Positions 21,674 through 44,531 of a DNA stretch of 64,000 nucleotides are shown here, piece after piece (within the stretch, counting starts at the first letter, position 1; every line of letters begins with the position of its first letter). Made by a program: the position numbers and the translations under genes. Location of the stretch: contig NZ_CP130058.1 in NCBI RefSeq assembly GCF_030644365.1, positions 806,001 through 870,000 of the forward strand. The letters run 5' to 3'. The notes below the pieces were generated by a model. The model was not told the origin of the DNA and searched no databases. It saw only the letters and a program-made list of their open reading frames with translations. The stretch comes from Schaalia sp. HMT-172. GTDB lineage: Bacteria; Actinomycetota; Actinomycetes; Actinomycetales; Actinomycetaceae.

Positions 21674-22013
21674 GCTTCACGCCAGCGCACGCAAGCATGT
21701 CGAGCGTGACAGGCTCACCGACGAGGCCGTCCTGTACGCGTATGAGCACGCCCTGAACTCACGTTCCCTCGACGATGAGGACGATCCCAGGAGATGGCTC
21801 GTCGTGGGTATCGTCCAGTCTGGACGTGTTCTCGAGATGGTCGTATTAGTTTTCGACGGTGGCGGAGAGCTCCTTATGTATGCCATGAAGGCTCGTCCTC
21901 AGTTCCTGGACGAACTCGCGTGGCTTGCGGGTGGCTACCCGCTGTGGCCGTGGGGAATGGTCGACGAATTCTGGAATCAGCCATCGCTGGAGGAGTCGGG
22001 GGCCGGTTCTTAA
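21663..22013 (+). CDS. Putative toxin, BrnT/RelE-like
   Basis: This 116-residue protein starts at the ATG at 21663 inside the antitoxin end (MSPRLHASARKHVERDRLTD). The layout with HASARKHVER at the start, VVGIVQSGRVLEMVVLVFD in the middle, and MYAMKARPQFLDEL near the end resembles small toxins related to the BrnT/RelE fold, which act as ribonucleases. The catalytic residues are not certain from sequence. The TAA stop lies inside the first, decayed repeat of CRISPR array 1, so the array directly abuts this gene. Confidence 0.65.
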   Translation: MSPRLHASARKHVERDRLTDEAVLYAYEHALNSRSLDDEDDPRRWLVVGIVQSGRVLEMVVLVFDGGGELLMYAMKARPQFLDELAWLAGGYPLWPWGMVDEFWNQPSLEESGAGS

Positions 22014-24586
22014 TGGGCCGTGTGGTACTCGGTGCTCTCTGACGAACGGCTTCGTGAAGCTTGAAGCGACCCTGTCTAAGTCTTAATGCACCGTTTGGCG
22101 CGCGGTGCTTTCTGACTGGCAAAGACCGGAGCTGACGGAAGCGCTGGTGCGTTGTCTTAATGCACCTTTTGGCGCCCGGTGCTTTCTGACAAGGAATTAG
22201 GCGTGGGAGCCGAAATTGAACTGCCTAACGGGTCTTAATGCGCCGTTTGGCGCTCGGTGCTTTCTGACGGGTGAGAAAAACATGATGGGCGACCATTTTG
22301 GCGAACAAGTCTTGATGCACCTTTTGGCGCTCGGCGATTTCCGACGGAGAGCGTTCGTCTCGTCCGTCAGCGTGTAGGTCTTGCGTCTTAATGCACCTTT
22401 TGGCGCTCGGTGCTTTCTGACGGCGACGTGGCCGATGTCCGACCCGTTGAGCTTGAACTGGGTCTTAATGCACATTTTGGCGCTCGGTGCTATCTGACGT
22501 GGCGGTGGTCAACACGAAGGGTGGCGTTGCTAAGTCTTAATGCACCTTTTGGCGCTCGGTGCTTTCTGACATTGAAGCGCTGAAGAAGAAGCACAACAAG
22601 TCAAAGTCTTAATGCACCTTTTGGCGCTCGGTGCTTTCTGACGCATCCTGGGCAACAAGCTTGGACTTTCGATCGGCGGGTCTAAATGCACCTTTTGGCG
22701 CTCGGCGCTTTCTGACTAAGGTCAGCTAAGCCGGTGACAAGGTCGAGAAGGGCGCGTCTTAATGCACCTTTTGGTGTTCGGTGCTTTCTGACGTGACCTG
22801 TACGATGACGAAACAGCCACTATCCCATGTCTTAATGTACCTTTTGGCGCTCGGTGCTTTCTGACAGACATCGAGCTCTGACGGCAAAGCGACGAGCACG
22901 TCGTATTGTCTTAATGCACCTTTTGGCGCTCGGTGCTTTCTGGCAACAACGTCCTCAACAGCTTCCACACCTACGAAAAGAGTTAATGCACCTTTTGGCG
23001 CTCGGAGCTTTCTGACCTCTTCATGCAGTGCGTCGCCTGGGAAGAACTCGGCGAGTCTTAATGCACATTTTGGCGCTCGGTGCTTTCTGACTCTACCGTC
23101 CTGGCGTCGCCGTCCGGGACAGTCAAGGCGTCATAATGCATCTTTTGACGCTCGGTACTTTCTAACTTATCCCTTGGGCTGTCTCTATCGCAGACACTAT
23201 TGGCGTCTTAATGCACCTTTTGGCGCTCGGTGCTTTCTGACTCGGCAAGCCCTCCAACCTCACCACCCCCAACTTCGAGTCTTAATGCACCTTTTGGCGC
23301 TCGGTGCTTTCTGACGGGATGCTGATCGCACTGACACTCTCCACGAACACACTGTCTTAATGCATCTTTTGGCGCTCGGTGCTTTCTGACCCAGGAACAC
23401 GCACTCCCGGCGGGGCGCTCGCTTACTGTCTTAATGTACCTTTTGACGCTCGGTGGGAGCCCGTCTCGGAGGGTTGTTGGAAAATGTCGCATGCAATTCG
23501 GCTGGGAGTTCTTCAATATTTGAAATGGGAACGTTGATATTCTGCGGTTTTGGATGGTTGTTGAAGTGTGTGCTAAGGGAATTGCATGCGAGTTTTTGGG
23601 GCGCTCGGTGCTTTCTGACCAAGTACCTTCTGTCGATCGAGGGACTGTGTTCGATGTCTTAATGCGCCTTTTGGCGCTCGGTGCTTTCTGACTTCAAGTC
23701 AGGAGATTAATCCAGAACATACGCGATGGTCTTAATGCACCTTATGGCGCTCGGTGGTTTCTGACTCGTCACTCCAGTCAGCAGCCGAAGCTCAGTCGAC
23801 CGGGTCTTAATGCGCCTTATGGCGCTTGCTGCTTTCTGACCGGGCGAAGTTCGCGCGAATCTGTCGCTCGGTCTCGGTCTTAATGCACCTTTTGGCGCTC
23901 GGTGCTTTCTGACGAGCGGGCGACAGCCTTCGCCACACCTCGCGTTGTCTGTCTTAATGCACCTTTTGGCGCTCGGTGCTTTCTGGGTCGTCGGAATTTA
24001 CCGCCTATGAATCGGTTCAATTGTCTTAATTCACCTTTTGGCGCTCGGTTCTTTCTGACTCAGCGACTACAAGCAAGCCACACACTTCAAGCGTGCCGCG
24101 TCTTAATGCACCTTTTGGCGCTCGGTGCTTTCTGACCGAGTTCAACCCGAAGATCACGCCGGCTGCTCTGGCGTCCGTCTTAATGCACCTTTTGGCGCTC
24201 GATGCTTTCTGACTATGTGAAGAACCATCGCTATAGTCGCCACAACAAGTCTTAATGCACCTTTTGGCGCTCGGTGCTTTCTGACGCGTGTGGATGTGCA
24301 GCGCGGTACTGGCTACCATACTGGGTCTTAATGCACCTCTTGGCGCTCGGTGCTTTCTGACCTGGAGACCGCGATCATCGCATCAAGGTCATCAGCGAGA
24401 AGTCTTAATGCACCTTTTGGCGCTCGGTGCTTTCTGACGCGCGACTGCGTGTGCTGCGGTGATGAACCCGGTAAGGCGTCTTAATGCACCTTTTGGCGCT
24501 CAATGCTTTCTGACGCGACGATCATCGTCGTCCCCGCCCTGATCGGAGCGTCTTAATGCACCTTTTGGCGCTCGGTGCTTTCTGAC
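22008..24586 (-). CRISPR. CRISPR array 1, 33 repeats including decayed ones
   Basis: The 37-nt repeat reads on the minus strand from GTCAGAAAGCACCGAGCGCC to a terminal GGTGCATTAAGAC; spacers are mostly 35-42 nt. The 3' ATTAAGAC is the typical 8-nt crRNA handle of Cas6-processed type III systems, which sets transcription leftward. Repeats are decayed at the left (22008, 22080, 22309, 22680, 23130) and clean at the right, next to the leader, as expected when new spacers enter at the right. One repeat (23428-23619) is split by a palindrome-ended element. I count 33 repeats by eye. Confidence 0.97.
23481..23598 (+). repeat. Palindrome-ended repeat element, copy 4, inside a CRISPR repeat
   Basis: AAAATGTCGCATGCAATTC and GAATTGCATGCGAGTTTTT bound an interior with CTTCAATATTTGAAA and AACGTTGATATTCTGCGG. 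The left repeat part ends with GACGCTCGGTG and the right part starts with GGCGCTCGGTG, so 10-11 bases of the CRISPR repeat are present on both sides, as after a target-site duplication. About 25 extra bases (23456-23480) precede the left palindrome and belong to the inserted DNA. Confidence 0.88.
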
Positions 24587-24839: not shown

Positions 24840-25290
24840 ATGACGACACCTGCCACGGCCTCGTCCCTGAGAGAAGTGACCAGCCCGGAGGCCCTCACTC
24901 GCGCCAGACGCCGACTCCTCACAGCACACCCGGACCCCGCCTGCTCGGACACCCCCATGTCAGGAAGCCTCACCGATGAGCAGCTCCGCGTCCTCGCCGC
25001 GAGCGACTGGGTCCCGCCACGGATCACCGCTCTCGATGCGAACACGATCGCAACGGCGGACGCTATCACTCGGGCGCTCCTGGCCGAATCAGTGCGCGAA
25101 ACCCTCGAACGCCGCCTCGCCGCGGAACGCCCCCACGGCACCTACGACGACACACGCGCAGGACACGACGCCTTCAATAGGGGAGTCGTCGAGGACTACG
25201 ACCATGGCAACCACCACCTGGCGCGAGCCACTATCCGCCCGGCCGACCTAGGCCTCGTGACCCGCGCGGCACTCTCGGTATTAGGGGCTC
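24840..25290 (+). pseudogene. Truncated duplicate of the cas1-fusion N-terminal domain
   Basis: This frame runs for about 150 residues (MTTPATASSLREVTSPEALT, then LTDEQLRVLAASDWVPPRIT) and is about 90% identical to the first part of the gene at 30473. Homology ends at the codons for ALSVLG, where an ISL3-type terminal repeat (GGCTCTTCATAATTGAGGG) begins. The rest of the N-terminal domain and all of the Cas1 part are missing. With its leader and array it forms a duplicated array-leader-cas unit. The domain itself matches nothing I recognise. Confidence 0.75.
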
Positions 25291-25309
25291 TTCATAATTG
25301 AGGGTGTAG
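25284..25309. mobile_element. Solitary ISL3-type terminal repeat
   Basis: GGCTCTTCATAATTGAGGG, continuing into TGTAGGG, matches the terminal repeat of the 31119-32568 element and of the remnant at 13835. Only the end survives, and it joins two truncated genes tail to tail, consistent with an IS-mediated deletion. Confidence 0.65.
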
Positions 25310-25739: not shown

Positions 25740-25765
25740 GATCTATCAACCTCCACGGCGAGGTG

Positions 25766-27713: not shown

Positions 27714-30219
27714 GATCTAGTGCACCGTCTGGTGCTCGTTGCTTTCTGACCTGTAAGCATCGCTCGTGGCAGACCCGCAGTGAGCTGTCCTAATGCACCT
27801 TTTGGCGCCTGGTGCTTTCTGACTCACCCCCATTGAAGGCGCAGACCGTATCGTCGCCGCGTCTTAAAGCACCTTTTGCGCTCGGTGCTTTCTGACGTGT
27901 CGTCGTCAAGCTCATGGAACGCAGGGACACCATGAAGTCTTAATGCACCTTTTGGTGCTCGCTGCTTTCTGACTCGGGCACTGTGAGCTATGGCGAGCTA
28001 TGCTCGCTCCTGGTCTTAATGCGCCTTTTGGTGCTCGGTGCTCTCTGACTATTATCCTTGTCCTGGCCGTGTTCGCGTGGTTGTCGTCTTAATGCACCTT
28101 TTGGCGCTCGGTGCTTTCTGACCGCGCTGCTGTCTCAGCAGAAGCCGATGTGCTTCGGGTCTTAATGCACCTTTTTGCGCTCGGTGTTTTCTGACAAGAG
28201 ATCGGCTCGGGCATCAAGCCTGCGTCGTTCGTCGGTCTTAATGCACCTTTTGGCGCTCGGTGCTATCTGACCCTGGCCTTCCTCTCCATCGTCGGCTACG
28301 CACTCGGACTGTCTTAATGCACCTTTTGGCGCTCGGTGCTTTCTGACCTGGGGCGCACGCCTATGGAGGCGCTGGTCTACCGGGGGTCTTAATGCACCTT
28401 TTGGTGCTCGGTGCTTTCTGACTCACGATCGTGCTGCCTACCGCGACCCAGGATAACCAGTCTTAATGCACCTTTTGGCGCTCGGTGCTTTCTGACCTGC
28501 TACATGCGCCGACAGACGTGGTTCGTTGATTTGTCTTAATGCGCCGTTTGGTGCGGGCCGCGGATGGTTCCGCAAAAATGTTGCACGTAATTCCCGGCCT
28601 GTTGTTTCAACGTTTGAAGTCGGATCGTTGAAATTCCGCGATTTCTGAGAGTTGGTACAGAGTTGAAAGAAGGGAATTACGTGCGAAATTTGGGGCGCTC
28701 GGTGCTTTCTGACGGAGACTTCGTCCGCGTCCGCGAGGGCTTCGTGCGTCTGTCTTAATGCACCTTTTGGCGCTCGGTGCTTTCTGACCGAGGACGGGGC
28801 ATCCAGGCATCCGTCGCCCTCCAGTGTCTTAATGCACCTTTTGGCGCTCGGTGCTTTCTGACTCGACACACTGAACATGTGCCAGGTGTTCAACACGTGG
28901 GTCTTAATGCACCTTTTGGCGCTCGGTGCTTTCTGACCTATCGCGGACTTTGTGGACGAAAACCCTGGGTTTGCGTCTTAATGCACCTTTTGGCGCTCGG
29001 TGCTTTCTGACCTTTCATCGGGTACCCCCATGGAAGAACTATACGCCCGGGTCTTAATGCACCTTTTGGCGCTCGGTGCTTTCTGACCTTTCATCGGGTA
29101 CCCCCATGGAAGAACTATACGCCCGGGTCTTAATGCACCTTTTGGCGCTCGGTGCTTTCTGACCGTCGTTGAAGTCGCTCGCCTCGGTCACCAGCTCCTC
29201 GGTCTTAATGCACCTTTTGGCGCTCGGTGCTTTCTGACCGACGGTGTCCGCGTGTTCACATAATCGAGCACGACGCCGTCTTAATGCACCTTTTGGCGCT
29301 CGGTGCTTTCTGACTGCGTATCATGACCGCTGCGATCAAACCGTTCATTCAGTCTTAATGCACCTTTTGGCGCTCGGTGCTTTCTGACAGATCGAACAAT
29401 TCGGTTCGTATGAGGAGTTCGTGAAAGTCTTAATGCACCTTTTGGCGCTCGGTGCTTTCTGACGAAGGGCGGGGCAGTTGCCATTAAGGTTGCCGCGAAT
29501 TACCGGTCTTAATGCACCTTTTGGCGCTCGGTGCTTTCTGACGAAGGGCGGGGCAGTTGCCATTAAGGTTGCCGCGAATTACCGGTCTTAATGCACCTTT
29601 TGGCGCTCGGTGCTTTCTGACGGTGAGCCGGTTGGTCGTAGGTGTCCGCAGGCGTTGGTGCGTCTTAATGCACCTTTTGGCGCTCGGTGCTTTCTGACTC
29701 GCCAAAGCGAAAGTTAGCAAGTCGAGTCCTATCAGTCTTAATGCACCTTTTGGCGCTCGGTGCTTTCTGACACACCATCGAGGAGCGGCAGGACGTGCGC
29801 GGCATCATGGTCTTAATGCACCTTTTGGTGCTCGGTGCTTTCTGACTCGCGTCTACATCGTCTCGATGATCGCCGCGCAGGCGTCTTAATGCACCTTTTG
29901 GCGCTCGGTGCTTTCTGACTTGGCATTGCGTTTGCGCTTGCTAACGATCTGATTAGGTCTTAATGCACCTTTTGGCGCTCGGTGCTTTCTGACCAGTTAG
30001 GGAGTCCGTGTACGACAAGCCTAAGTTGAACGTCTTAATGCACCTTTTGGCGCTCGGTGCTTTCTGACCTGCTACTACTGCACTTTTAAGCGCTAAGAAA
30101 GGAGAAGTCTTAATGCACCTTTTGGCGCTCGGTGCTTTCTGACTCACAGAAATCTACCCTGATCTGCAATTCATGCGAACCAGTCTTAATGCACCTTTTG
30201 GCGCTCGGTGCTTTCTGAC
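27714..30219 (-). CRISPR. CRISPR array 2, 32 repeats including decayed ones
   Basis: It has the same 37-nt repeat and orientation as array 1. Repeats are decayed on the left (27714, 27787, 27861, 28013) and nearly identical from 28752 to the leader. Two neighbouring repeat-spacer units are exact duplicates: the spacer at 29012-29050 recurs at 29088-29126, and the one at 29464-29505 recurs at 29543-29584. One repeat (28533-28713) is split by a palindrome-ended element. I saw no spacer shared with array 1. Confidence 0.97.
28574..28692 (+). repeat. Palindrome-ended repeat element, copy 5, inside a CRISPR repeat
   Basis: The left end is AAAAATGTTGCACGTAATTCC and the right end GGAATTACGTGCGAAATTT; both arms carry the same change (GCACGTAATTC for GCATGCAATTC), so pairing is kept. 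The interior has GTTTCAACGTTTGAAG and GATCGTTGAAATTCCGCG. The right junction enters the CRISPR repeat at GCGCTCGGTGCTTTCTGAC, exactly as in copy 4. Confidence 0.88.
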
Positions 30220-30472
30220 TGCCCGGCGTGTCGCACCCCCTGTGGCCAGGGAAAACGTCGTACCGGATCGCCAGTGGCCGAAAAAGCACCCCTCCGGCCA
30301 GCAAGCACGAGGTTAGATTACCAGACTTTTCGTTGCGACTGCTCGCATCGCCGCGGAACGCCTGCGGGGCCGACTCTGTCCCGGAAATCGCCGCCATCAT
30401 CGGCGTGTCGCTTCTCCATAACGCTTGACGCTTGGCGAGTAACTGCAAGGTTGTTGAGTGGAAGGACAGACA
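30220..30472 (-). promoter_or_regulatory. CRISPR leader 2
   Basis: This is the close homologue of 24587-24839, lying between the cleanest repeats of array 2 and the cas1-fusion start. It serves the leftward array and the rightward cas1-fusion gene, whose ribosome binding site GGAAGGA lies at its end. Confidence 0.8.
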
Positions 30473-31118
30473 ATGACGACACCTGCCACGGCCTCGTCCC
30501 TGAGAGAAGCAACCAGCCCCGAGGCCCTCACTCGCGCCAGACGCAGACTTCTCACAGCACACCCGGACCCCACCAGAGCGAACACCCCCATGTCAGGAAG
30601 CCTCACCGACGAGCAGGTCCGCCTCCTCGCCGCGAGCGACTGGGTCCATCCACGCATCACCGCACTCGACGCGAACACTCTCACGACGGCTGACACCATC
30701 ACCCGCGCGCTCCTGGCCGAATCAGTGCGCGAAACCCTCGTACGCCGCCTCGCCGCAGAACGCCCCCACGGCACCTACGACGACACGCGCGCAGGACACG
30801 ATGCCTTCAGTAGGGGAGTTGTCGACGACTACGACCACGGCAACCACCACCTGGCGCGAGCCACTATCCGCTCGGCCGACCCAGGCCTCGTGACCCGCGC
30901 GGCACTCTCGGCACTAGGCCTGCCCGACACCGACACCACCATTATCGACGAACTCGCCCAGGCCTCGGACACCAACCCGATCGCGAGCGTGCTCGCCGAC
31001 GCGGCCCTGCTGGACCTTGACAGGTACGCCACTGGGCGAGGCCTGCGCTACTCGCGAGTCGAAACCGCCCTCATGCTCGCGGCACCAAGCGACCAGTGCC
31101 TGGCCGACGCCATCTACA
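30473..31118 (+). pseudogene. N-terminal domain of a Cas1 fusion, cut off by an ISL3 element
   Basis: About 215 residues precede the insertion. The region is Ala/Arg/Asp-rich and mostly helical, with LTDEQVRLLAASDWVHPRIT, ERPHGTYDDTRAGHDAFSRG and DYDHGNHHLARATIRS. I see no HD, RT, Cas4 or Cas6 signature and do not recognise the family. The codon broken by the IS at 31118 continues in frame at 32577 when one copy of the duplicated CATCTACA is removed, leading into Cas1 at 33724. The restored protein would have about 597 residues. As it stands the frame ends inside the IS after about 17 foreign residues. Confidence 0.8.
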
Positions 31119-32568
31119 GGCTCTTCAGAGTTGAGTGTGGGTGGAGGCGTCTAGGCCTCCTGCGATGAGGAGCATTCGGAGTTTGTAGTTGGTGGGGTTG
31201 CGGTAGCCTCTGGCGGTGCGTCTGCCCAGCTCGATGATTCCGTTGATGGCTTCCGTGCGGTGCGTTGCTGGCTCCGTCGGTATCGAAGTAGGCCAAGAAG
31301 GCGTCCTTCCACTTGCGTAGGGTCCGGCCCAGGCGAGCGATTTCGGGGATGGGACACGTTGGTAGGCGCTGGATGAGACGAGCTGCCGGGCGTTGGCCTT
31401 GGGTGGGTGTGTCTTGGTGGAAGACCTCGCGCACTTGCTGGGCGCAGCGGTAGGCGGCTTTAACACTGATATGCGCTTCATCTGCCGTGAAGGCCTCACG
31501 GAGGCGTTCTTGTTGACGCTTCGTGAGCCGATCACGCGAGGCGCGCAAAAGAAGCCGGATTTGATAGAGGGGATCACCCTTGCGTCCGCGGTGACCCAGG
31601 GTGTCTTGCTGGACGCGGCGACGCACCTCACCTGGGGCGTCGCCAGCGAGCTTGACGATGTGAAAGGCGTCGAGGACGCTGGTGGTGTCTTGGAGCTGGT
31701 CGTCAATGGCGTTTTTATATCCTTGGAAGGGATCTAGCGTCGCGATCTGGATACCGGAGGGGAAGTCTTCGCCGCGCTCTTCTAGCCAGTTCTCATGCAC
31801 GGTGCCAGACCTTCCCGGGACCAGGTCTAACAAGCGGGCCGTGGGGTGATCCTCCCCTCGCGTCAGGTCTACGATGCCGGTGAGCTCACGGGGCCCCCGT
31901 CGGCGTCGGTCCTGGTGGTGCCATACGTGCTCGTCAACCCCCAGCACCCGCACTCCCGTGAAACGGGCAGGGTCATCAGATGCGGCTTGCAGATACGGCT
32001 TGATATGGGACCACACGGTGTTCCACGTGGTTCCTAACTGGCGGGCCAATCCTGCAATGGTGGCTCCCTCGAAGCGCAACTGTCGGATCGCCCAGCGGAT
32101 CGCCCGGGCGCCCAGACGCGCCCGGGGTGCGCACATCTGCTCGTCATGCTCCAGGAATGTCACCGTCTGGCAGGTGGTTTCGCGGCATATCCATCGGCGC
32201 TTAAACCATCGGATCCGCGCCGGGACCCCGGCCCAGGGCGCGTCGATGACCTCCACGACCACGCGCCCGTGGCCTTGTGCGATCACCCCACAACCCGGGC
32301 AGCCAGCACAGCGATCACAGGACTCTATGTCGAGCACCAGCGCATTTGGGGTGCGAGCCACGCTCATCAGATGGAAGCCCTCCAAACCGACGAGCAGATC
32401 ACACCGATCACAACGATCAAGCGACACGCAGCAGCAGCAGGTAGGGTGAGACATTGTCGAGGTCCTTGACGACAGCGGGGGTAGAAGTCCGCTCATCATC
32501 AAGGACCTCGACCTCTACCCGCAACCCCCGACCAACACCCGGTCACCCACACTCAACTCGGAAGAGCC
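31119..32568 (-). mobile_element. ISL3-family insertion sequence
   Basis: This 1450-bp element is bounded by the 8-bp duplication CATCTACA (31111-31118 and 32569-32576), the size expected for ISL3. Terminal repeats GGCTCTTCAGAGTTGAGTG and its partner ending CTCAACTCGGAAGAGCC are clear. A subterminal palindrome (GTCGAGGTCCTTGA) lies ahead of the transposase start, perhaps limiting read-in transcription. It interrupts the cas1-fusion gene. Confidence 0.93.
31125..32454 (-). pseudogene. ISL3-family transposase with a C-terminal frameshift
   Basis: The start at 32454 (MSHPTCCCCVSLDRCDRC) is followed by the zinc-binding segment CDRCAGCPGCGV, the HTH region FEGATIAGLARQLGTTWNTVW, and the catalytic core VRVLGVDEHVWHH, IATLDPFQGYKNAI and VLDAFHIVKLAG. 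Near 31257 one extra base shifts the frame just after FDTDGASNAP; the expected C-terminus (EAINGIIELGRRTARGYR, then NPTNYKLRMLLIAGGL) continues in the next frame to 31125. The unshifted frame runs out through the terminal repeat. It is either inactive or needs frameshifting. Confidence 0.85.
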
Positions 32569-32576
32569 CATCTACA

Positions 32577-33724
32577 CCGTCGCGGTCGCGGCCATTGGCG
32601 CGGGCGCGCGCCTCACCGACGTGACGACCCAGTACATTGACGAGGAGAACGCCCTCGCGAGCATCGGCATCGACCCGTGGGCCACCCGGTCCAGCGACGA
32701 ACACACAGGCCAAGCCGACCGCATCCTCTACGTCGGCCGCGACGGCGCACGCGTCCATGTCAAAGCGGGCCGCGTCCTCGTAGACGCGCCCGGCTCGCTG
32801 CCCGCCACCTCCGTGCCGAAAAACAGCGTCACGCGCATCGTCCTGTCCGGAAACGTCGGCCTGTCCGCCGGCGCGCGCTCGTGGGCGATGCGCAGTGGCG
32901 TCGACGTCGTGTGCCTGTCGCGGCGAGGCTCCTACCAAGGCACCCTCATCGGCGCCAACAGGGGAGCGCACGCCAGCAGGCTCCTCGCGCAAGTCGCCCT
33001 CGTCGGCGACCATGAGCGGCGCGTCCGCCTGGCCGCCAGCCTCATCGGCGCGAAAATCCGCGGCCAAATCCACGTCCTCACCCGCATCGCCCGACGCGAC
33101 GAAACCGTGCACGTCGCCGACACGACCGCACAAATGCACGCGTGGCGTCGCTCGCTCACGGATGCGCGCACCCTCGACGAGATCATGGGCATCGAAGGCG
33201 CGTGCTCCAACGCCTACTTCGACGCGCTCGCCGCGTGCGCACCCGCCGACGTTACCTTCGACGGGCGCAGCCGACGCCCACCCCGCGACCTGCCCAACGC
33301 CGCCCTGTCCTACGGGTACGCCATCCTCCTGTCCGAATGCGTCGGCGCGCTCCACGCCGCCGGGCTCGAACCGAGCCTCGGCATCGCGCACGCGCCCACC
33401 GACAAGCGGCCCAGCCTGGCGCTGGACCTCATGGAACAATTCCGCCCACTCCTGGTCGACCAAACCGTCATGGCACTCCTGCGCACGCGCAAACTCCGGC
33501 CCGAACACGGCGTCGTCGAGGCCGAAGCCGGGGGAGTGTGGCTGGGCAGCGACGGCAAGAAAATCCTCGTCGACGCGTACGAGGCCGCCTGCCAGCGATC
33601 CGTCACCGGTGCCCTCCCCGGATACTCGGGGTCGTGGCGCAGGCACATCGCCCACTCCGCGCAGATGCTGGCGCGAGCCATCGCGGAACCCGACTACCAG
33701 TGGAGCGGGGTCGCCTGGCGATGA
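32577..33724 (+). CDS. cas1: Cas1 integrase (C-terminal part of a split fusion)
   Basis: The Cas1 fold starts around RILYVGRDGARVHVKAGRVL. The metal ligands are all present: Glu in IMGIEGACSNAYF, His in SLGIAHAPTDKR and Asp in LALDLMEQFRP. It joins new spacers to the leader end of the arrays together with Cas2. The frame is open from the right edge of the ISL3 element; a GTG at 32621 is a possible new start but has no ribosome binding site. Production today may depend on internal initiation. The gene overlaps cas2 by ATGA. Without the IS it would be the C-terminal half of a fusion. Confidence 0.93.
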
Positions 33725-34002
33725 TCTACATCATCGCCTACGACATCGCCGACAACAAACGGCGGCTCCGCGTCGCGAAAACACTGGAATCCTGGGGCTA
33801 CCGCATCCAAGAATCCGTGTTCCAACTCCGCCTCGATTCCGCCACGCTGGCGTGCGTGCGCTCGTCTCTAGCTGTCCTCATTTCGGAGAGCGACGACGTC
33901 ATCCACATCTACCCCATCTGCTCATCCTGCGCCGACCGTGCCGACATACTCGGCGCGGCCGTAGCACTGGACGACGTGGGGTTGTGCCGGGGAGTGTGGT
34001 GA
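33721..34002 (+). CDS. cas2: Cas2
   Basis: This 93-residue protein opens with MIYIIAYDIADNKRRLRVAK, the Cas2 ferredoxin-fold beta strand with the conserved Asp, and contains YRIQESVFQLRLD, the usual second strand. It dimerises to bridge two Cas1 dimers in spacer integration. The start overlaps the cas1 stop, so translation is coupled. It ends about 100 bases before the convergent effector operon. Confidence 0.95.
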   Translation: MIYIIAYDIADNKRRLRVAKTLESWGYRIQESVFQLRLDSATLACVRSSLAVLISESDDVIHIYPICSSCADRADILGAAVALDDVGLCRGVW

Positions 34003-34100
34003 GAGGCTAGCGGGCGTGGCGTAGGCACATACCCAGACAAGACTTGATGCCTGTTGTCTTGAGGCAACACTGGAACTCACGGCGGCGCTCGTAGCTGTGC

Positions 34101-36356
34101 TCAGTTTGGTTTCTTCGGTATTTTCAGAGCCTCGTCCCAGTTGTCGGCAGCGAGTGGGCGTGGGGCCTGTCCGCGCCCAGACTTAATCTTTCCGTCAGAC
34201 TCGGTCTTATTATTTTGTTGATTCTCGCTCAGTGTCATGTAACGAACATCAGTACTGCCGGGATAGCCTAGGCAAGACCTGAGAAAAGCTTTGCACCATG
34301 GTGTGTTGGAAAGAACCTGATAGAAGTCCTCTGCATCCTTAAAGAATTCCTCTTTCCAATCCTCGTTAAGCTCATCTATCTCGGGGTCGATGACTCCTAG
34401 GCATCCTTTGAGAGCTTTGTAGTCGTCAACAAGTCCAAATACGTTACTGTTGTTTGGAGAAGCTGTTTTGATGCAGCTAAGTGCAGAAAAGGATGTGCGA
34501 ACTACCCCAAGGCCGAGAGGCTTACCCATACCCATTCGCAGGTAGCCCTCATCGGGAACTTTGCCATCCTTTTGATTAGAATCTGGCAGATGTTGCTCCT
34601 TCTGTGCGTACCGTCCTAGGAGCTTAGAGTCTAGAACCCAAAGGAGTGTCCAGAGCTCCTCTTTTCGTAACCCTTCAAAATGAAGAGTGCATTGGAATGT
34701 GCTGCTGCGTGGAATCCAGCTTATTGCTGTGGAATAGATATCCTGATTCGTCTTCTCCTGTCGTCTAGGATTCTCTTCTGATTGCTCTTTTTCATAAGAC
34801 GCTAGGGTTGCGTAATCTAAGCGTCCGTCCCCCTTTTTCTTAATTCCTGCATCTCCGCGTCGAAATCCATATGAAGCCGCACCGAGGAAGTCGCCTTTGG
34901 AATAGTAACCAGGTCTAGGACGTCCGCTGATCGTGTGGCCTGAGGCATCAGTGAGAAAACGGCGAGCCGAATTTGTCTTTGGTTCGAGAAGCGGGCGAAG
35001 ATCCAATCTTATATCCTTCGGTGTTACGCCGCTTGTGTCAACTGCGCTGATTGTAATTCTTCCTCTAAGGTGCGATGCCTGTCTGTTTGACTGATCGGAG
35101 GGCCTCTGAGTGTCGTTGGATGTGAAACCAAAGATATGGTCGGCAGGGGAAGCCTCGAACGCGTCGACAACCGGGAGCACTCCCTGTGCCCGTGCTAAGC
35201 TGCGTGGACTCCGCGAATAGTTGCGTCTGCCGACCTGCGTAGGCATGAGCTCAACGACCTTCCTGCCATTGAGGCGGGCATATGCTAGCAGACCGGAGTG
35301 GTTGATCGGATCTATGTCCTTGTTGCCTGCTCGATCGATAACGAATCTGCTTGGTTTAGTTGGTATCTTTGAAGTGGGATCTGTTGAGTCGTAGGAGTAT
35401 GACCAGATAATCTGATCGTAGGTCTCTGCCACTACGGGATCGATCTCAATTTCTTCACAATTGCTAGGCTGGTCATTGAAGAAGATTCGCTCGGATAGTT
35501 TAGAATCGAATATAGACTTTCCAGCCTTGAGGATGTGGTCAGGTGTGGTGGAATAAAACCAGCCCGTATGTGCGGTTTCCTCACTATCCGAATTAGTGAC
35601 CCAGTCTGGAATGTTGAGCTGCGAGTATACCTTATCCTCTCTAGCTTTGATCTGTGTGACGATATACGAATCCTCAATCTTTTTTGCCATAAAGTCAATG
35701 AGTTTGCCGTGTTGGAGCTTGTTCCAGACGGGAGAGTCCTTGAGGAGGGGGAGTCGCTTCTTGTTTTCCTCGTCCCCGTCGGTTTCATGTGTCAGTAGTT
35801 TTGCGTAGAGAGCACGCCTCGGACCGTACAGCAGTTTCCCTCGGTGAGTGCCCTGGTCGTACTTATCATTTAGTCTTACCGGCACAAGTTCGAGAGCGGC
35901 AGCTGGATCTGCCCTGTATGTCAGAGTAGCGTTGTGTTCGCCGAAGGCGCGGAAACGTGAGGCTGTCAAACGTTCGTATGCGTTTGAGATCATGCCTTTA
36001 ATCATTGCTGGGGAAATTAATGGATTTTTAGTTGTTGGATCGATGGGGATTGAGATTTCAGCAGGCGTTCCTTTTGATTTCTTTTGATTACCAAAAATAA
36101 GGGCTGTCATCACTTCAATTGATAGGCGGAGAGATCCATTATATGTATCAATTCCTAGGTGGTCAAGGGGGGTGGGTATTTTGTCAGCCAGAAAGGTTGT
36201 TATCTCTTCAGTAAGATTAGGGTAGACGGAGCCGCTCTGTTCTTGAGCCTTTGTGCTGCTGGGTGCGGGCCTTTGAAAGGAGGAGCGTAATACTGGGATG
36301 CAGTTCACTGATGAATGGAAAGAAGTGGATTCCGGCTTTTGTTTGTTGCTTGACAT
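34101..36356 (-). CDS. Large type III RAMP protein (TIGR03986-like)
   Basis: The product has about 751 residues. An N-terminal RAMP (Cas7-like) core begins at YNGSLRLSIEVMTALIFGN, followed by PLISPAMIKGMISNAYERLT, the RAMP helix after the first strand; a glycine-rich loop GMGKPLGLGVVRTSF near residue 600 matches the RAMP G-loop. Between them are long inserted segments. This layout fits the TIGR03986 RAMPs found beside Csx10 and Csx19 in type III-D loci, where such a subunit binds crRNA or target RNA. I take the ATG at 36356, three bases past the upstream stop; an overlapping ATG at 36368 is possible. The gene is clearly AT-richer than its neighbours. Confidence 0.75.
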   Translation of the reverse strand: MSSNKQKPESTSFHSSVNCIPVLRSSFQRPAPSSTKAQEQSGSVYPNLTEEITTFLADKIPTPLDHLGIDTYNGSLRLSIEVMTALIFGNQKKSKGTPAEISIPIDPTTKNPLISPAMIKGMISNAYERLTASRFRAFGEHNATLTYRADPAAALELVPVRLNDKYDQGTHRGKLLYGPRRALYAKLLTHETDGDEENKKRLPLLKDSPVWNKLQHGKLIDFMAKKIEDSYIVTQIKAREDKVYSQLNIPDWVTNSDSEETAHTGWFYSTTPDHILKAGKSIFDSKLSERIFFNDQPSNCEEIEIDPVVAETYDQIIWSYSYDSTDPTSKIPTKPSRFVIDRAGNKDIDPINHSGLLAYARLNGRKVVELMPTQVGRRNYSRSPRSLARAQGVLPVVDAFEASPADHIFGFTSNDTQRPSDQSNRQASHLRGRITISAVDTSGVTPKDIRLDLRPLLEPKTNSARRFLTDASGHTISGRPRPGYYSKGDFLGAASYGFRRGDAGIKKKGDGRLDYATLASYEKEQSEENPRRQEKTNQDIYSTAISWIPRSSTFQCTLHFEGLRKEELWTLLWVLDSKLLGRYAQKEQHLPDSNQKDGKVPDEGYLRMGMGKPLGLGVVRTSFSALSCIKTASPNNSNVFGLVDDYKALKGCLGVIDPEIDELNEDWKEEFFKDAEDFYQVLSNTPWCKAFLRSCLGYPGSTDVRYMTLSENQQNNKTESDGKIKSGRGQAPRPLAADNWDEALKIPKKPN

Positions 36357-36358
36357 GA

Positions 36359-36943
36359 TTAGTTCCATTCTCCCGTGAATAGCTGGTCGACCACGACCGT
36401 GTTTCCGTACTTATCCTCTTCGCGTATGAACTCGACTGCCGTCATCTGCTTGGTGGTGGCGTTTTCTTTGCTCTTGCCTGTCTGAGCGGAGGGGGCCTCC
36501 GAGGTTGAATCTGCATCACTGTCCGCTGCGGACTCGTGCTGCAGATAGCTCACCTTGTGGAACCATCCACTGACGGGTTTTGGCTCCGAGCCTTCGGACG
36601 CTGCGTTGGCTGTGCCTTTCGTGAGTGTCAGCTCAACGGCACCCACGCCGTTTACCCAACGGAACTCGTGGGCAAGCGTCGAGTCTGCGCTGTCACTGTC
36701 AATGACCCGCCAGAGGCGGATCTCATAAGTGCGTGAGTCATCGAAGCTTGCGGACTTTACATCCGGCACTCGGTGCGTACCGTTGGTTGTCCATACAATG
36801 CCGGCGAACTCGTGGGCAGCAGATTTCTCATCGATATACGCAGTGAGCGCAGTAGCGTTACCGATTATGTGATTGGTGGTCGTTAGGTGGCAGGGGAGCA
36901 GGTTTGCTGCGTGCCCGTGGTTATCGATATTTGTCTCATTCAT
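36359..36943 (-). CDS. Csx19-like small type III-D subunit
   Basis: This 194-residue acidic protein starts with ATGA overlap after the triple-Cas7 gene. It contains a beta-rich first half (EFAGIVWTTNGTHRVPDVKS, TYEIRLWRVI, HEFRWVNGVG) and a Ser/Ala/Asp linker at about 135-165, ending with AVEFIREEDKYGNTVVVDQL. Its position between Cas7 and the TIGR03986-like RAMP, its size and the pattern of ELRLW-type strands suggest Csx19 (TIGR03984), but the match is weak. It could be another accessory subunit of the effector complex. Confidence 0.5.
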   Translation of the reverse strand: MNETNIDNHGHAANLLPCHLTTTNHIIGNATALTAYIDEKSAAHEFAGIVWTTNGTHRVPDVKSASFDDSRTYEIRLWRVIDSDSADSTLAHEFRWVNGVGAVELTLTKGTANAASEGSEPKPVSGWFHKVSYLQHESAADSDADSTSEAPSAQTGKSKENATTKQMTAVEFIREEDKYGNTVVVDQLFTGEWN

Positions 36944-39759
36944 TGCTCGTCGCTCTCATTAGGCGTGGAGGCCCCGTTTGTTGGCTCTTCGAGCTTTTGT
37001 AAACGTTCAGCCCAATCCTCATATGAGGGTTCTTTCTCTGTCTTGTTTCTCAGATAGGCCAGAAGTGCTGTTGCGCCTCCGCGCGCATCATCTTCACTGC
37101 TATCGTTGCGTTTCCACAAAATCTCTTCTGGTGGAGTATTTACGACCTGACCATCAGCGCCAGCCACGCTGAGGCTCGTTACCTCAACTTGGCCGTGGCC
37201 TCGGGTTGTCCTGCCTCCGAGCGGAAGCGTGCCCGCGCTGAGTTCCGCTAGGGCAATACACAGGAGACACCAGGACGCTCGGGCGAAGGGTAAACACTCG
37301 TCGAGTGGTAGGCCGCCGATACCCGATTCGGTCTTCACGTTCTGAAGAAGACGTGCGGTGTCAACCTCGATCACGATGTCATTCCACGTCGCGTGCGGAT
37401 AGGTCACCTCGTTGAACAGGAGCCCCTCGACGACTCCGCCGGTCCACCGGTCGATTGCATTATGAGTGACCGTGACTGACGGTCCGGTGTCCTTCGTCGT
37501 ACAGTCTCGGACTCGAACTGCCCCACGATATTCGGTGGTACCGAACATGTAACGCACGAGCCGTGGCTCTTTTGCCAGTTGCTCGTGAATATCGATGGGT
37601 ACCTGGTTGCCATCGCTATCTGCCTGAGTGAAGCTCTCGACCTGTGATGGGGGATTATCGGCATACAGTACGGTTCGAGCGATCCGCGAACACCTGGAGC
37701 GCAGTGCACCACGAATTGAGGTGCCGGGAAGTAGCAGGGGAGCTGTGCTGTTCTTCCCGTTATTGTCAGCACTCTTAGCACTGAGGGGATATTGAGTATT
37801 TCCGTCGTCTGCCTGGGGGTCATGCACGAATACGCCCGTCGGTGAATTCCACCCGATCCGCACCGTCGTCGGGCGGAAGTGAGAGGGAAGAGAACTTCCC
37901 TGATCGTCACCGGGTCCTAGCTCCGCCCACTGTCGAATCAGGTTGATGACTCTTTGCTCAGCCGAGGTTGCTTCGTCAACATCTTCCGCAAAAGCGGTGA
38001 GGATACGCGTCAGAATGTCTCGTGCAAAGTTTGCTCGAGCCTCGCGCACCTTGCAAGAATCTTCGGGATGGTCGGCTGCCTCGAAGAGGATCTCGACAGG
38101 TGATGTATCGTCTGGCAATCCATTGACACGCACACATGAGACCTCGATGAAGCCGAGACCCCCGCCTGTCCCTCCTCCAAGAGGGAGGACTCCCTTGCAG
38201 AGGTCGGTGACGGCCATGGTTAGGAGTAGGATAGCTGCTCGCAGGCGGTTTTTGATGGCCGGTTGCTCACAATCCTGGTCTGACGAGGACACGGTTGAAA
38301 GTGCGCAGTCGCCGAGGTCCTGGCAGATATTCCGACATAGCTGCGCATGGTCGATCTCGATCTCGATTGCATCCCATGCAGCATGCGGATACAGCAGCTC
38401 CGAATACAACGCTCCGTGGGCAGCGCTTCCGGTGACTCGGTCGATCGCGTTGCGTGTGAGCTTCAGAGGCTTATCCTTTTCCCCTTGTCTTGGGATCTGC
38501 CCCTCGCAGTCGTGGACGCGGACCGCTCCCCGGTACTCGGTTGTCCCGAACAAGTAGCGGACGAGGATCGGATCTACGGCGAGCTGCTTGTGAACATCCT
38601 CCGGCATCGTGAGTTCGTCGCAACCTTCGCTGTCGCTGACGATGCTGCGAGCAATGCGAGTACAGTGAGACCGCAACGCCCCGCGGATCGACGTGCCCGG
38701 AAGCAGCAGCGAGGCCTTGTCCTCATGTGCGACTTTCGGATAATTGGCATCCCCGTGATCGGCGCGATGCGTGTCATTGAGGTGCCAGTTGCGCAGTGGC
38801 GCTGCGGGTACCGTGTCTTCTTCCGAGGATTTGATGCCGTCGGGCTTGTTCATTCCGACGAATAATCCCGACGGAGCCTGCCACTCAATCTTGATGTTGG
38901 TTGATGCAGATTGACGGTCCAGGTTCTTGTCAGGCTCGATGTCTACAGGCGAGCGCTGGTCAAGTATGTCAGCAAGAACGCTAGCTGAATCCCCCTTTTC
39001 GCTCTTCGAATCGGGGACGACTACCAGCTTGCAGTCATAACTAGTATTCTCGTTGATCGGCTCGATGCGACCCCAACCGGACCCTGTCCTGCCTCCGAGG
39101 CTGATGCACTTGCCGTGGAGGAGTGTTACGACCGCTTGCAGGGCTTTCTCAACGAGAGCAGGGGGTGCAGGAGGTGTCCCCTTTGTTTCCTTGCTCGGTG
39201 TTGTGGACTGTGCATTCTTGTCTTCTGGGGGTTCTCGGGTCGGGTCCTGGGCTTCGGCACTGACACAGATCTCGAAAGTCGTGTCCACGGGCAGGTACTC
39301 GTACGCGAAAAGTGCACCGTCTGCGGCCCCGCCGGTGGCACGGTCAATGGCCGTGCTCATGCGGTGGGGGAGCTCGCCTTTAGTACGGTCCCATACCACG
39401 GCGTGGTGGAAGGTGAGGGCGCTTGCCCGCAGTGGGCGGGATTCGTCGGTTCCGCTCTCACGTTGCTTTTTGCGAGTACCGACCTCCGAACGCATCTCAC
39501 CGCCCCACAGGCTCTTGAGTTCCTCTTTGCGGAAGCCAAGCTCTTTCATGTGTTCTTCGAATGCGGCACGAATGGCTCCCTTGATGGAGCGACCCGGTAG
39601 GATCGCCTCACCCAGCCCGTTACGCACGAAAGCGTTCGGCTGCACAGTCCGGCCGTCCTCGTCGGTTATGGGGCGCTCAGGTACTTCGTCGACGCCGCCG
39701 GAGTGCAGCGCGGAGACGACGCGCACGGGAATCGTCATGTCATAGCGGTAAATGGTCAT
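36940..39759 (-). CDS. Triple Cas7 (Csm3-like) fusion protein
   Basis: This 939-residue protein carries three consecutive Cas7 RAMP domains. Each has the strand-loop opening and LPG-S-I-GA-R motif (LPGRSIKGAIR at 54-64, LPGTSIRGALR at 353-363 and 677-687), an AIDR-TG motif (from 138, 439 and 769) and a C-terminal G-loop (LGGRTGSGWGR at 221, LGGGTGGGLGF at 527, LGGRTTRGHGQ at 847). Cas7 units form the crRNA-binding backbone and cut target RNA with a loop Asp; candidates lie in LHSGGVDE (domain 1) and VFVHDPQADDG (domain 3). It overlaps both neighbours by ATGA. Multi-Cas7 fusions are known in III-D2 and III-E systems. Confidence 0.88.
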   Translation of the reverse strand: MTIYRYDMTIPVRVVSALHSGGVDEVPERPITDEDGRTVQPNAFVRNGLGEAILPGRSIKGAIRAAFEEHMKELGFRKEELKSLWGGEMRSEVGTRKKQRESGTDESRPLRASALTFHHAVVWDRTKGELPHRMSTAIDRATGGAADGALFAYEYLPVDTTFEICVSAEAQDPTREPPEDKNAQSTTPSKETKGTPPAPPALVEKALQAVVTLLHGKCISLGGRTGSGWGRIEPINENTSYDCKLVVVPDSKSEKGDSASVLADILDQRSPVDIEPDKNLDRQSASTNIKIEWQAPSGLFVGMNKPDGIKSSEEDTVPAAPLRNWHLNDTHRADHGDANYPKVAHEDKASLLLPGTSIRGALRSHCTRIARSIVSDSEGCDELTMPEDVHKQLAVDPILVRYLFGTTEYRGAVRVHDCEGQIPRQGEKDKPLKLTRNAIDRVTGSAAHGALYSELLYPHAAWDAIEIEIDHAQLCRNICQDLGDCALSTVSSSDQDCEQPAIKNRLRAAILLLTMAVTDLCKGVLPLGGGTGGGLGFIEVSCVRVNGLPDDTSPVEILFEAADHPEDSCKVREARANFARDILTRILTAFAEDVDEATSAEQRVINLIRQWAELGPGDDQGSSLPSHFRPTTVRIGWNSPTGVFVHDPQADDGNTQYPLSAKSADNNGKNSTAPLLLPGTSIRGALRSRCSRIARTVLYADNPPSQVESFTQADSDGNQVPIDIHEQLAKEPRLVRYMFGTTEYRGAVRVRDCTTKDTGPSVTVTHNAIDRWTGGVVEGLLFNEVTYPHATWNDIVIEVDTARLLQNVKTESGIGGLPLDECLPFARASWCLLCIALAELSAGTLPLGGRTTRGHGQVEVTSLSVAGADGQVVNTPPEEILWKRNDSSEDDARGGATALLAYLRNKTEKEPSYEDWAERLQKLEEPTNGASTPNESDEQ

Positions 39760-43879: not shown

Positions 43880-43892
43880 GGTCGGTTCCTCC

Positions 43893-44531
43893 CTACTCAT
43901 CATTGCGCGGAGGTAGGGTTGTCAGGAGCGAATGAATGTCGCTCAGGACTCTTCCTTGTGCGTTGACGATAGTGCTGAAGGCGCGTGCGATACACCGATC
44001 TGTATGTTCGTTGGGGCGCTTCAGCATTCCGGGCGTTAGAACAATCAGCCCTTGAGTGTCATTATTCCGTTTGAGTTGTTCGAGGACCCTTCCGAGTCTT
44101 GTTTCGGCCTGATCTTGTCGTTTAGTTCTCTCCGCAATCTTGGGGGGTAGGTCAAGTGAAAGGACGATAAGGTCAGCCTCCCTTGAGACATTCTCATTTT
44201 GAATAATTCGATTCTTAATTAGGGCTGATTTGCTTAGGTCCTCTGCGACTCTATCTGAGAGTTCTTTGTCTCCCATTAGCTGGATGACACGTTCGGAAAG
44301 GCCGTATGACAGGCGCTTGTTGTAGTTTTCAAGCACCTTGTTTGCGATTATTGTTCCAACCACTGCGACGATGATGGCTCCGGCGATCGCATTTATGAAA
44401 GGAAATATAAATGTGGTTGCGACTTGGCGCCAGGTCTCGTTATTGAACTGAGCGAACAGAACTAATGTCGTAGCGAGGGCTGCGATTAGGAAAATGATGA
44501 TCCCGATATAAATGTGCCGTACCTTGTTCAT
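43893..44531 (-). CDS. 2-TM membrane protein with a cytoplasmic domain, candidate CRISPR effector
   Basis: This 212-residue protein has two helices (about 6-27, IGIIIFLIAALATTLVLFA; about 40-64, FIFPFINAIAGAIIVAVVGT), joined by FNNETWRQVA. The soluble part includes a helical stretch, then alternating strands and helices (EADLIVLSLDLPPKIAERTK, QGLIVLTPGML) that suggest a small alpha/beta domain. The helical hairpin is homologous to the next gene (F-N/D-N-E/Q-TW and F-FP). Starts and stops overlap its neighbours, so it is part of the cas operon between cas6 and cas10. No known family is recognised; SLATT-like 2-TM effectors are an architectural analogy only. Confidence 0.75.
   Translation of the reverse strand: MNKVRHIYIGIIIFLIAALATTLVLFAQFNNETWRQVATTFIFPFINAIAGAIIVAVVGTIIANKVLENYNKRLSYGLSERVIQLMGDKELSDRVAEDLSKSALIKNRIIQNENVSREADLIVLSLDLPPKIAERTKRQDQAETRLGRVLEQLKRNNDTQGLIVLTPGMLKRPNEHTDRCIARAFSTIVNAQGRVLSDIHSLLTTLPPRNDE

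What the first reader, a model, noticed from the sequence alone, without database searches (positions are those of the whole stretch)
30473..33724. Cas1 fused to an unrecognised N-terminal domain and split by an ISL3 element with an exact 8-bp duplication
Removing 31119-32568 and one copy of CATCTACA restores a single frame from 30473 to 33724 (about 597 residues): a 220-residue unknown domain joined to a Cas1 with all catalytic residues. The frame match after excision is exact. The domain shows no RT, Cas4 or Cas6 motif, so it may be a new adaptation partner domain.
Basis: partly seen in the sequence, partly recalled or inferred. Interest (0 to 1): 0.85.

Follow-up and report, generated by a model that had tools for sequence, protein, structure and literature searches.

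The report
Decayed reverse transcriptase fused to Cas1
The unknown domain joined to this CRISPR integrase is a reverse transcriptase that has lost its active site yet stayed fused to the integrase in related bacteria, a natural test of whether such systems can memorise viruses without copying RNA.

Summary
A 1,450-bp ISL3 element (25-nt inverted ends, exact CATCTACA duplication) splits a cas1 fusion gene; the joined flanks give one 597-residue frame. Relative G018 has the same fusion uninterrupted.

The reading "new adaptation partner" does not hold: the N-terminal domain is a decayed reverse transcriptase (RT). Profiles align it collinearly with RT domains of Actinomycetaceae RT-Cas1 proteins, above all controls; its Cas1 nests inside the RT-Cas1 clade; intermediates bridge the gap. 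Motif A and C aspartates and the motif B segment are gone. RT was probably lost at least twice, but one loss is not rejected.

Cas1 keeps its catalytic residues. The pseudo-RT is under relaxed but measurable constraint (dN/dS 0.42-0.53 in three close pairs, one with limits including 1; active RTs 0.07-0.17). Nine genomes share no spacers, suggesting acquisition continued after RT loss.

Most likely: a former RT-Cas1 acquiring from DNA only, its dead RT perhaps kept as a structural part; here the IS probably ended type III adaptation. No structure could be predicted.

The parts
30473..31118 (+). first part of the pseudo-RT domain of the interrupted pseudo-RT-Cas1 gene (ATG 30473), residues 1-215
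   Evidence: 60% identical to the G018 N-domain; hhalign of this sequence alone to canonical RT domains E 3.4e-5, score 39.5 over 93 columns, against at most 25.8 in 60 control frames
31111..31118 (.). left copy of the 8-bp target duplication CATCTACA
31119..32568 (.). ISL3-family insertion sequence, 1450 bp, with 25-nt inverted ends 31119-31143 and 32544-32568
31114..32502 (-). ISL3 transposase reading frame
   Evidence: NF033550 E 3.4e-67 (stretch 31117-32454)
32569..32576 (.). right copy of the target duplication CATCTACA
32579..32725 (+). last part of the pseudo-RT domain and linker to Cas1 (49 codons)
   Evidence: aligned with the end of the G018 N-domain
32726..33724 (+). Cas1 integrase domain; motifs GIEGA, GIAHAPT and ALDLMEQFRP with the E, H and D residues present
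   Evidence: PF01867 E 6.9e-77; sequence; motifs of relatives
33721..34002 (+). cas2
   Evidence: PF09827 E 4.1e-19
27787..30219 (.). CRISPR array 2, 37-nt repeats, leader side at the right, next to the pseudo-RT-cas1 gene
30220..30472 (.). leader between array 2 and the gene
   Evidence: position; part of the 300-nt stretch duplicated at 24550-24849 (family D13, 92% identity)
22007..24586 (.). CRISPR array 1, same repeat
24840..25301 (+). truncated second copy of the pseudo-RT domain behind array 1 and its leader, 88% identical to the first
34101..36368 (-). type III Cas7-like (TIGR03986 / Csm3-like) effector subunit
   Evidence: PADLOC E 9.8e-39; TIGR03986 E 1.5e-40, below its cut-off
36359..36943 (-). 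Csx19
   Evidence: PADLOC E 1.4e-66
36940..39759 (-). type III-D Cas7 protein with three RAMP stretches
39756..41858 (-). Cas7/Cas5-like type III-D protein
   Evidence: weak matches, best PADLOC E 3.5e-9
41855..43903 (-). Cas10 with a GGDD motif
   Evidence: PADLOC E 2.3e-110; motif read
43893..44531 (-). membrane protein of type III operons (PADLOC Mem_04)
   Evidence: PADLOC E 2.7e-87
44893..45696 (-). Cas6
   Evidence: PADLOC E 4.5e-142

Best explanation
The gene is a former RT-Cas1 fusion of a type III-D CRISPR system. Shown by sequence: its reverse transcriptase domain has lost the active-site residues and a central segment, while the reading frame and the Cas1 domain were kept in relatives of the lineage; an ISL3 insertion has now broken the gene in this strain. 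Inferred: before the break the protein worked with Cas2 as an integrase that took spacers from DNA without copying RNA, with the dead RT fold kept as a structural or gating part of the Cas1-Cas2 complex; in this strain type III adaptation is now probably off, while the effector genes and the old spacers can still act. My confidence is about 0.95 for 'decayed RT', 0.7 for 'acquisition continued after RT loss' and 0.4 for 'the pseudo-RT still has a structural role'. The figure below is for the statement as a whole.
For: (1) Uninterrupted fusions in relatives: open frames G018 669, G008 602, G032 644 codons (proteins). (2) Homology: hhalign of the window-lineage profile to 8 RT domains with FADD: E 6.6e-8, score 58.2, 232 columns, collinear; reversed 14.9, best of 60 column shuffles 21.7; best of 60 other open frames of the window 25.8. 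G008 links at E 2.2e-21, G065 and G177 below 1e-50. A profile of six pseudo-RTs finds only RTs in the PDB, among them Cas6-RT-Cas1 7kft at 1.1e-9. (3) The Cas1 tree places the window lineage inside an RT-Cas1 clade (24 rows, 100/100). (4) Motifs: A-Asp and D-Lys lost in 5 of 5 aligned pseudo-RTs, B-segment missing or damaged, both C-aspartates lost in 4 of 5 and one of the two in G065. (5) Cas1 E/H/D kept in 17 of 17 aligned fusions. (6) dN/dS of the pseudo-RT 0.51 (0.36-0.74) and 0.42 (0.27-0.61); truncated copy against the window domain 0.28 (0.14-0.53). (7) No spacer shared among nine genomes; G018, G032 and G008 have repeat variants of their own. (8) No RVT_1 match at E 1e-3 in G000, G006, G018, G008, G032 or G177. 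(9) Wang 2021 (PMC8102632, section 11): an RT helix enters the Cas1 active site, and RT mutants D540A and K574A lost more than 80% of RNA ligation but only 20-33% of DNA ligation.
Against: The link from window lineage to RT is weak by single sequences: no Pfam hit for G018, G008 or G032; a profile of G018, window domain, truncated copy and G008 finds no RT in the PDB below E 0.29, and a chance hit scores better; the truncated copy alone (153 residues) gives no RT signal (score 19.0, within the controls); the window-lineage profile gives none against the more distant RT group (E 0.038). In one search an unrelated place (G025) scored better than the true RT hit G124. The pseudo-RT is under relaxed constraint: window-G006 0.53 has limits that include 1, window-G008 is 0.92 and G018-G008 1.42 (saturated, 25-26% identity). 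The part that would hold the gating helix is not more constrained than the rest (0.62 for codons 160-215, about 0.56 for the tail), which speaks against a special helix role. Three of the six genomes of the lineage (window, G006, G023) have a broken gene; but so do 5 of the 15 FADD relatives. G006 has 6 and G023 has 3 repeat copies identical to the window's, so repeats separate G018, G032 and G008 from the window but not those two. Whole-array replacement could mimic acquisition after RT loss. There are no structural and no acquisition data.
Confidence: 0.7

Rival explanations
1. The pseudo-RT is a neutral relic: RT function was lost, the frame stays open only because Cas1 is translated from the upstream start codon, and the domain does nothing.
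For: Relaxed constraint relative to active RTs (0.42-0.53 against 0.07-0.17 in close pairs) and a shortened domain; no sub-region stands out as conserved; three of six genomes of the lineage have a broken gene. Toro 2019 passages (PMC6753606) report Cas1 proteins that have lost the RT almost wholly, so the domain can be shed.
Against: dN/dS is below 1 with limits below 1 in two of three close pairs of the window lineage, and in both comparisons of the truncated copy; an open frame alone would not conserve residues. The domain persists at 261 and 267 residues in G018 and G008 and about 278 in G032, where I chose the start by alignment.
Confidence: 0.42
2. The N-terminal domain is an unrelated, new adaptation partner that replaced the RT.
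For: No usable family hit for the window domain; window-lineage profile with G008 finds no RT in the PDB; truncated copy alone gives no RT signal.
Against: Collinear profile match above 60 shuffles and 60 control frames; graded intermediates G177, G065, G008, G032; same position, and its Cas1 nests inside RT-Cas1.
Confidence: 0.04
3. The system still acquires from RNA through an RT supplied in trans, or the pseudo-RT has another polymerase activity.
For: Nothing positive; pseudo-RT genomes keep sizeable arrays.
Against: No RVT_1 match at E 1e-3 in six of the seven pseudo-RT genomes searched; the seventh, G065, has only its own domain (G023 was not searched, G008 is only 70% complete). The aspartates of motifs A and C are gone in every row of the window lineage in which they could be seen.
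Confidence: 0.03

Closest known systems
RT-Cas1 fusions of Actinobacteria (RT-CRISPR clade 10 in Toro 2017, table passage of PMC5541045; that these exact proteins fall in clade 10 is my inference)
   Same: same domain order, type III effector beside the window gene, Cas1 of the same clade
   Different: RT motifs A, B, C and D lost; N-terminal region about 265 residues instead of about 295 (by alignment)
Thiomicrospira Cas6-RT-Cas1 (PDB 7kft/7kfu; Wang 2021, PMC8102632, passages and section 11)
   Same: RT domain N-terminal to Cas1; a profile of six pseudo-RTs matches it at E 1.1e-9
   Different: no Cas6 part in the fusion; catalytic RT residues gone
RT-loss cases in type VI-A adaptation modules (Butyrivibrio Cas1 with a short RT remnant; frameshifted RT in Drancourtella and E. 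rectale; PMC6753606, passages)
   Same: RT function lost beside a kept Cas1
   Different: there a frameshift or near-complete removal; here a long in-frame domain that has lost its catalytic residues, kept across diverged genomes
ISL3 insertion sequences
   Same: transposase family, inverted ends, 8-bp duplication
   Different: nothing notable

Membership tests
functional RT-Cas1 fusion | RT-derived domain fused in frame N-terminal to Cas1 | tested here: met
   met for the lineage (G018, G008, G032); interrupted by the IS in the window
functional RT-Cas1 fusion | RT catalytic residues (motif A Asp, motif C AspAsp) | tested here: not met
   window RATIRS and YSRVETALML; G018, G008, G032 and G177 lack all three, G065 keeps only one Asp of motif C, YAGD; G006 SRVGTT at motif C
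functional RT-Cas1 fusion | Cas1 catalytic E, H, D | tested here: met
   17 of 17 aligned fusions; window sequence
functional RT-Cas1 fusion | reverse transcription and RNA spacer acquisition | not testable with these tools
   needs biochemistry
RT fold (descent, not function) | collinear profile match to RT domains above controls | tested here: met
   not met by the window-lineage profile against solved structures alone
RT fold (descent, not function) | predicted palm/fingers structure | not testable with these tools
ISL3 insertion sequence | ISL3 transposase, inverted ends, 8-bp target duplication, further copies with the same ends | tested here: met
type III-D CRISPR-Cas | Cas10, III-D Cas7 and Cas5 proteins, Csx19 | tested here: met
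   PADLOC matches, (Cas5 match weak, 3.5e-9)

The most novel reading that the evidence does not exclude
A lineage of CRISPR integrases has turned its fused reverse transcriptase into a non-catalytic regulatory domain of Cas1: RNA memory was given up, DNA memory kept, and the RT fold was retained as a gate or scaffold for the integrase, with RT catalysis lost more than once in the Actinomycetaceae.
Probability: 0.36. Interest if true: 0.72.

Novelty: new variant of a known kind. Interest (0 to 1): 0.55.

Why it matters
In the work I read (Wang 2021) the role of the RT in RT-Cas1 was probed with engineered point mutants. Here evolution appears to have made the mutant and kept it: a graded series from FADD relatives through damaged ones (G011 with Asn in motif A; G065; G177) to heavily decayed ones (G032, G008, G018, window), with CRISPR arrays found near all of these decayed or damaged genes that I looked at. 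It makes two questions testable: can an RT-Cas1 system keep adapting on DNA alone, and does the RT fold have a role apart from polymerisation. It also warns annotators that Cas1 with an unrecognised N-terminal domain may hide a dead RT. The IS insertion itself is ordinary.

Tried and rejected
New domain: rejected, see rivals. DUF1465 (E 0.006, below cut-off): rejected. G025 match of the G018 N-domain (E 7.9e-7): it lies over frames that by eye are a sensor/regulator pair, and that genome gave no match to the window Cas1 at E 1e-10; taken as chance, and a warning that single-sequence E-values near 1e-6 are not enough here. 'Only one Cas1 in the genome' (suggested): wrong; PF01867 finds a second one, typed as I-E Cas1e in G000 and G018 with arrays of 61-nt period nearby (the weak second matches in G006, G008, G032 and G065 were not typed). 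The type III arrays have 37-nt repeats and spacers of variable length (33-42 nt in G000, G018 and G032), so I attribute them to the fused Cas1 by inference. A gating-helix role visible as local constraint: not seen. dN/dS of pairs with G008 (0.92, 1.42) is unusable through saturation and poor alignment; my first tail estimate was read out of frame and replaced. The first Cas1 tree script used a wrong frame and failed, repeated correctly. Several independent RT losses are not proven: the best tree needs three changes and starred branches force two, but holding all eight pseudo-RT rows together is not rejected (p-AU 0.196). Phage searches with the G018 and G032 arrays gave only IS or toxin-antitoxin matches, no protospacer. 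Viral contigs: three distant Cas1 loci only.
Full report
Observation. The window carries a type III-D CRISPR locus: two arrays of a 37-nt repeat (22007-24586 and 27787-30219), a leader, a gene starting at 30473, Cas1, Cas2 and, on the other strand, the effector genes. The gene is split by a 1,450-bp ISL3 element with 25-nt inverted ends and an exact 8-bp duplication; the joined flanks are open over 597 residues. Three other full-length copies, 90% identical with the same ends, lie elsewhere in the genome.

Is the fusion real? Yes. A search of 35 genomes of the genus with the window domain found it in 4, the window's own genome included. G018 carries both parts in one uninterrupted protein of 593 residues, 80% identical in Cas1 and 60% in the N-terminal domain. 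G006 has the same gene broken by frame changes and a stop, and G023 has a degraded copy in which only a 43-residue piece of the domain matched. Schaalia canis (NZ_RQZF01000007) is identical over 4,047 bases to the locus of G002 of the same genus, so the genus is the Schaalia group; Actinomyces oricola (= G055) and A. glycerinitolerans (= G046) place genus g3. The species of the window itself was not identified.

What is the domain? With the window Cas1 as query, 49 of 213 genomes of the family had a match at E 1e-10 or better. In the clade closest to the window's Cas1 (24 rows with the window) 15 have an RT upstream of Cas1 whose motif C reads FADD, 8 are pseudo-RT rows, and 1 (G070) could not be judged. 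Of the 15, the RT-Cas1 frame is intact in 10 and broken in 5 (G071, G064, G002, G058, G041); 14 keep the motif A aspartate and G011 has Asn instead. The 8 pseudo-RT rows are the window, G006, G018, G023, G008, G032, G065 and G177; in G023 motif C itself was not seen. G065 and G177 keep full length but have lost residues: motif C reads YAGD in G065 (one of two aspartates left) and HGSK in G177, and motif A has Arg and Glu. G008, G032, G018 and, by alignment to G018, the window have also lost the motif B segment. The motif D lysine is present in 12 of 12 aligned canonical RTs and in 0 of 5 aligned pseudo-RTs; by eye it is also absent in the window.

Strength of the link. The window-lineage profile (G018, the window domain, its truncated second copy and part of G006) aligns with 8 FADD-type RT domains over 232 columns, collinearly, E 6.6e-8, score 58.2. 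The reversed profile scores 14.9, the best of 60 column shuffles 21.7, and the best of 60 open frames of the window, first 265 residues of each, 25.8. Singly, G018 scores 46.3, G006 39.6 and the window domain 39.5, but the truncated copy only 19.0, so the signal sits in the later part of the domain. Against the more distant RT group (G201, G110, G101) the window-lineage profile gives no signal (E 0.038), and G032 aligns with the FADD group over only 61 columns (E 1.1e-5). A profile of six pseudo-RTs finds 11 chains among solved structures, all RTs (best 6ar1 6.8e-10, 7kft 1.1e-9), but it includes G065 and G177, which are still close to RTs; a profile of G018, window domain, truncated copy and G008 finds none better than E 0.29. 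Pfam RVT_1 matches G065 below cut-off (6.8e-6) and G177 not significantly (0.13), and does not match G018, G008 or G032. With the G018 domain as a single query 6 of 213 family genomes rang: G000, G006, G018, G008, the true RT G124 (5e-5), and G025, which I take as chance. Position, the Cas1 tree and the intermediates therefore carry much of the argument. In 396 genomes drawn from the order, 18 had a match to the G018 fusion at E 1e-30, and only G000 and G006 matched before query residue 160.

How often was RT lost? On the Cas1 tree pseudo-RT needs three changes (bootstrap 2-4) and starred branches force two; G177 pairs with the FADD relative G124 at 99/95. Holding all eight rows together is not rejected (p-AU 0.196). 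The window lineage (window, G006, G023, G018, G008) is one clade at 100/99, with G032 joining at 84/78.

Is the domain still constrained? Nei-Gojobori dN/dS of the pseudo-RT is 0.51 (0.36-0.74) for window-G018, 0.42 (0.27-0.61) for G018-G006, and 0.53 (0.25-1.26) for window-G006 (76 codons). The truncated copy gives 0.28 (0.14-0.53) against the window and 0.33 (0.22-0.49) against G018. Active RT domains give 0.07-0.17 in four close pairs (three of them among the same three genomes); more distant pairs give 0.36 (G061-G055) and 0.13 (G011-G061, dS 2.4). Cas1 of the window lineage gives 0.18-0.29 against 0.05-0.12 in those four pairs. So constraint is relaxed over the whole protein and most in the pseudo-RT, but not absent. 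Pairs with G008 give 0.92 and 1.42 and are unusable at 25-26% identity. Along the domain (G018 against window) the values are 0.64, 0.40, 0.32 and 0.62 for four stretches and about 0.56 for the tail: the part that would hold the helix next to Cas1 is not specially conserved. If neutral, about 9 stops would be expected in 215 codons, but translation of Cas1 alone would keep the frame open.

Did acquisition continue after RT loss? No spacer is shared between any two of nine genomes in the stretches examined (12 to 20 kb around cas1; 58, 70, 26, 30, 20, 63, 40, 16 and 20 spacers for G000, G006, G023, G018, G008, G032, G011, G177 and G065; the arrays of G006, G023 and G008 were parsed with a shorter repeat core). 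The repeats next to the leader are perfect in window array 2 and in the cas1-side end of the G018 array. In window array 2, 22 of 30 copies are identical; G018 has 16 identical copies of its own variant (of 32) and G032 has 54 of its own (of 65); G008 also has its own. G006 mostly has other variants, but 6 copies in G006 and 3 in G023 are identical to the window's. Since new repeats are copied from the leader end, I infer that most of these units were added after G018, G032, G008 and the window's group had split, hence after RT loss if it was lost in their common ancestor. Replacement of whole arrays is not excluded. G000 and G018 also have a type I-E Cas1e with an array of 61-nt period; because repeats and spacer lengths differ, I do not credit it with the type III arrays.

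Targets. Three window spacers matched phage records: Actinomyces phage LC001, host given as Schaalia odontolytica XH001 (33 nt, 94%, E 1e-3), and two places in Caudovirus D_HF4_2 from saliva (E 1e-4 and 6e-9). In the two Caudovirus places the window + strand is the coding strand of an annotated gene. LC001 is not annotated; there the place lies in a + frame of 280 residues, with an opposite frame of 283 residues overlapping. With the leader at the right the crRNA would be antisense to the transcript, as a type III effector needs. The number is too small for a test. Searches with the arrays of G018 and G032 found no protospacer.

Mechanism. Wang 2021 (PMC8102632; passages and section 11 read) shows an RT helix reaching into the Cas1 active site, and RT mutants that lose RNA ligation but keep most DNA ligation. 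The simplest reading here is a natural version of that mutant: a DNA-only integrase with a dead RT domain. The ISL3 element lies in the stretch that aligns just after motif C; that this corresponds to the gating helix is my inference. In the window strain Cas1 could only be made from an internal start (such as GTG 32621); a sigma-70-type scan found no promoter in 30200-34100 (other promoter types are not covered), so type III adaptation is probably off.

Literature. I saw no report of an in-frame, catalytically dead RT fused to Cas1 in the listings of searches (in some only 20 of 1,127 and 20 of 531 papers were listed) or in the passages read. RT-Cas1 with Actinomyces returned 0 papers and with Actinobacteria 1 (PMC5541045, passages). 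Silas 2017 (PMC5513706, passages) has nothing relevant under the terms tried. Toro 2018 (PMC6013744, passages) notes RT-like sequences with WGDD in place of YADD. Toro 2019 (PMC6753606, passages) gives RT-loss precedents. A further Toro survey (recalled, RNA Biology 2019) is not held. Only open-licence papers were searched, and no supplements were read.

Verdict. Observation confirmed; interpretation corrected: a decayed reverse transcriptase, a new variant of a known kind, of moderate interest because it offers natural RT-dead RT-Cas1 systems.

Noticed in passing
window 24550-24849 and 30183-30482; 24840-25301: Leader and start of the pseudo-RT gene are duplicated behind array 1 (92% over 300 nt); the copy is truncated after about 150 codons and followed by other sequence and a transposase-like frame (25763-27124, by eye, family not tested).
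   Followed up: partly
window 29427-29584 and about 29012-29125: Two tandem duplications of a repeat-spacer unit with identical spacers in array 2 (79-nt unit 100% identical; a second pair of identical 39-nt spacers).
   Followed up: no
window 43893-45331: A type III associated membrane protein (PADLOC Mem_04) next to Cas10, followed by a second frame with a hydrophobic segment (by eye); possibly effectors switched on by cyclic oligoadenylate (inferred).
   Followed up: no
L131 (G351, another family of the order): RT-Cas1 remnant in which the stretch with motif C appears to be missing in frame between PLWANLALS and RDEALEA; a possible further RT loss.
   Followed up: partly
L018 / G011: RT-Cas1 with intact FADD but Asn in place of the motif A Asp: perhaps an early stage of RT loss.
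   Followed up: partly
G000:C1:2249000-2263999 (L167): A separate type I-E Cas1e and an array with about 102 repeat copies of 61-nt period in the same genome.
   Followed up: partly
window 5446-7824, 8047-12435, 17080-21189, 46133-48676: Four long related frames that look like secreted subtilisin-type proteases with C-terminal wall-binding-like repeats (by eye, not searched).
   Followed up: no
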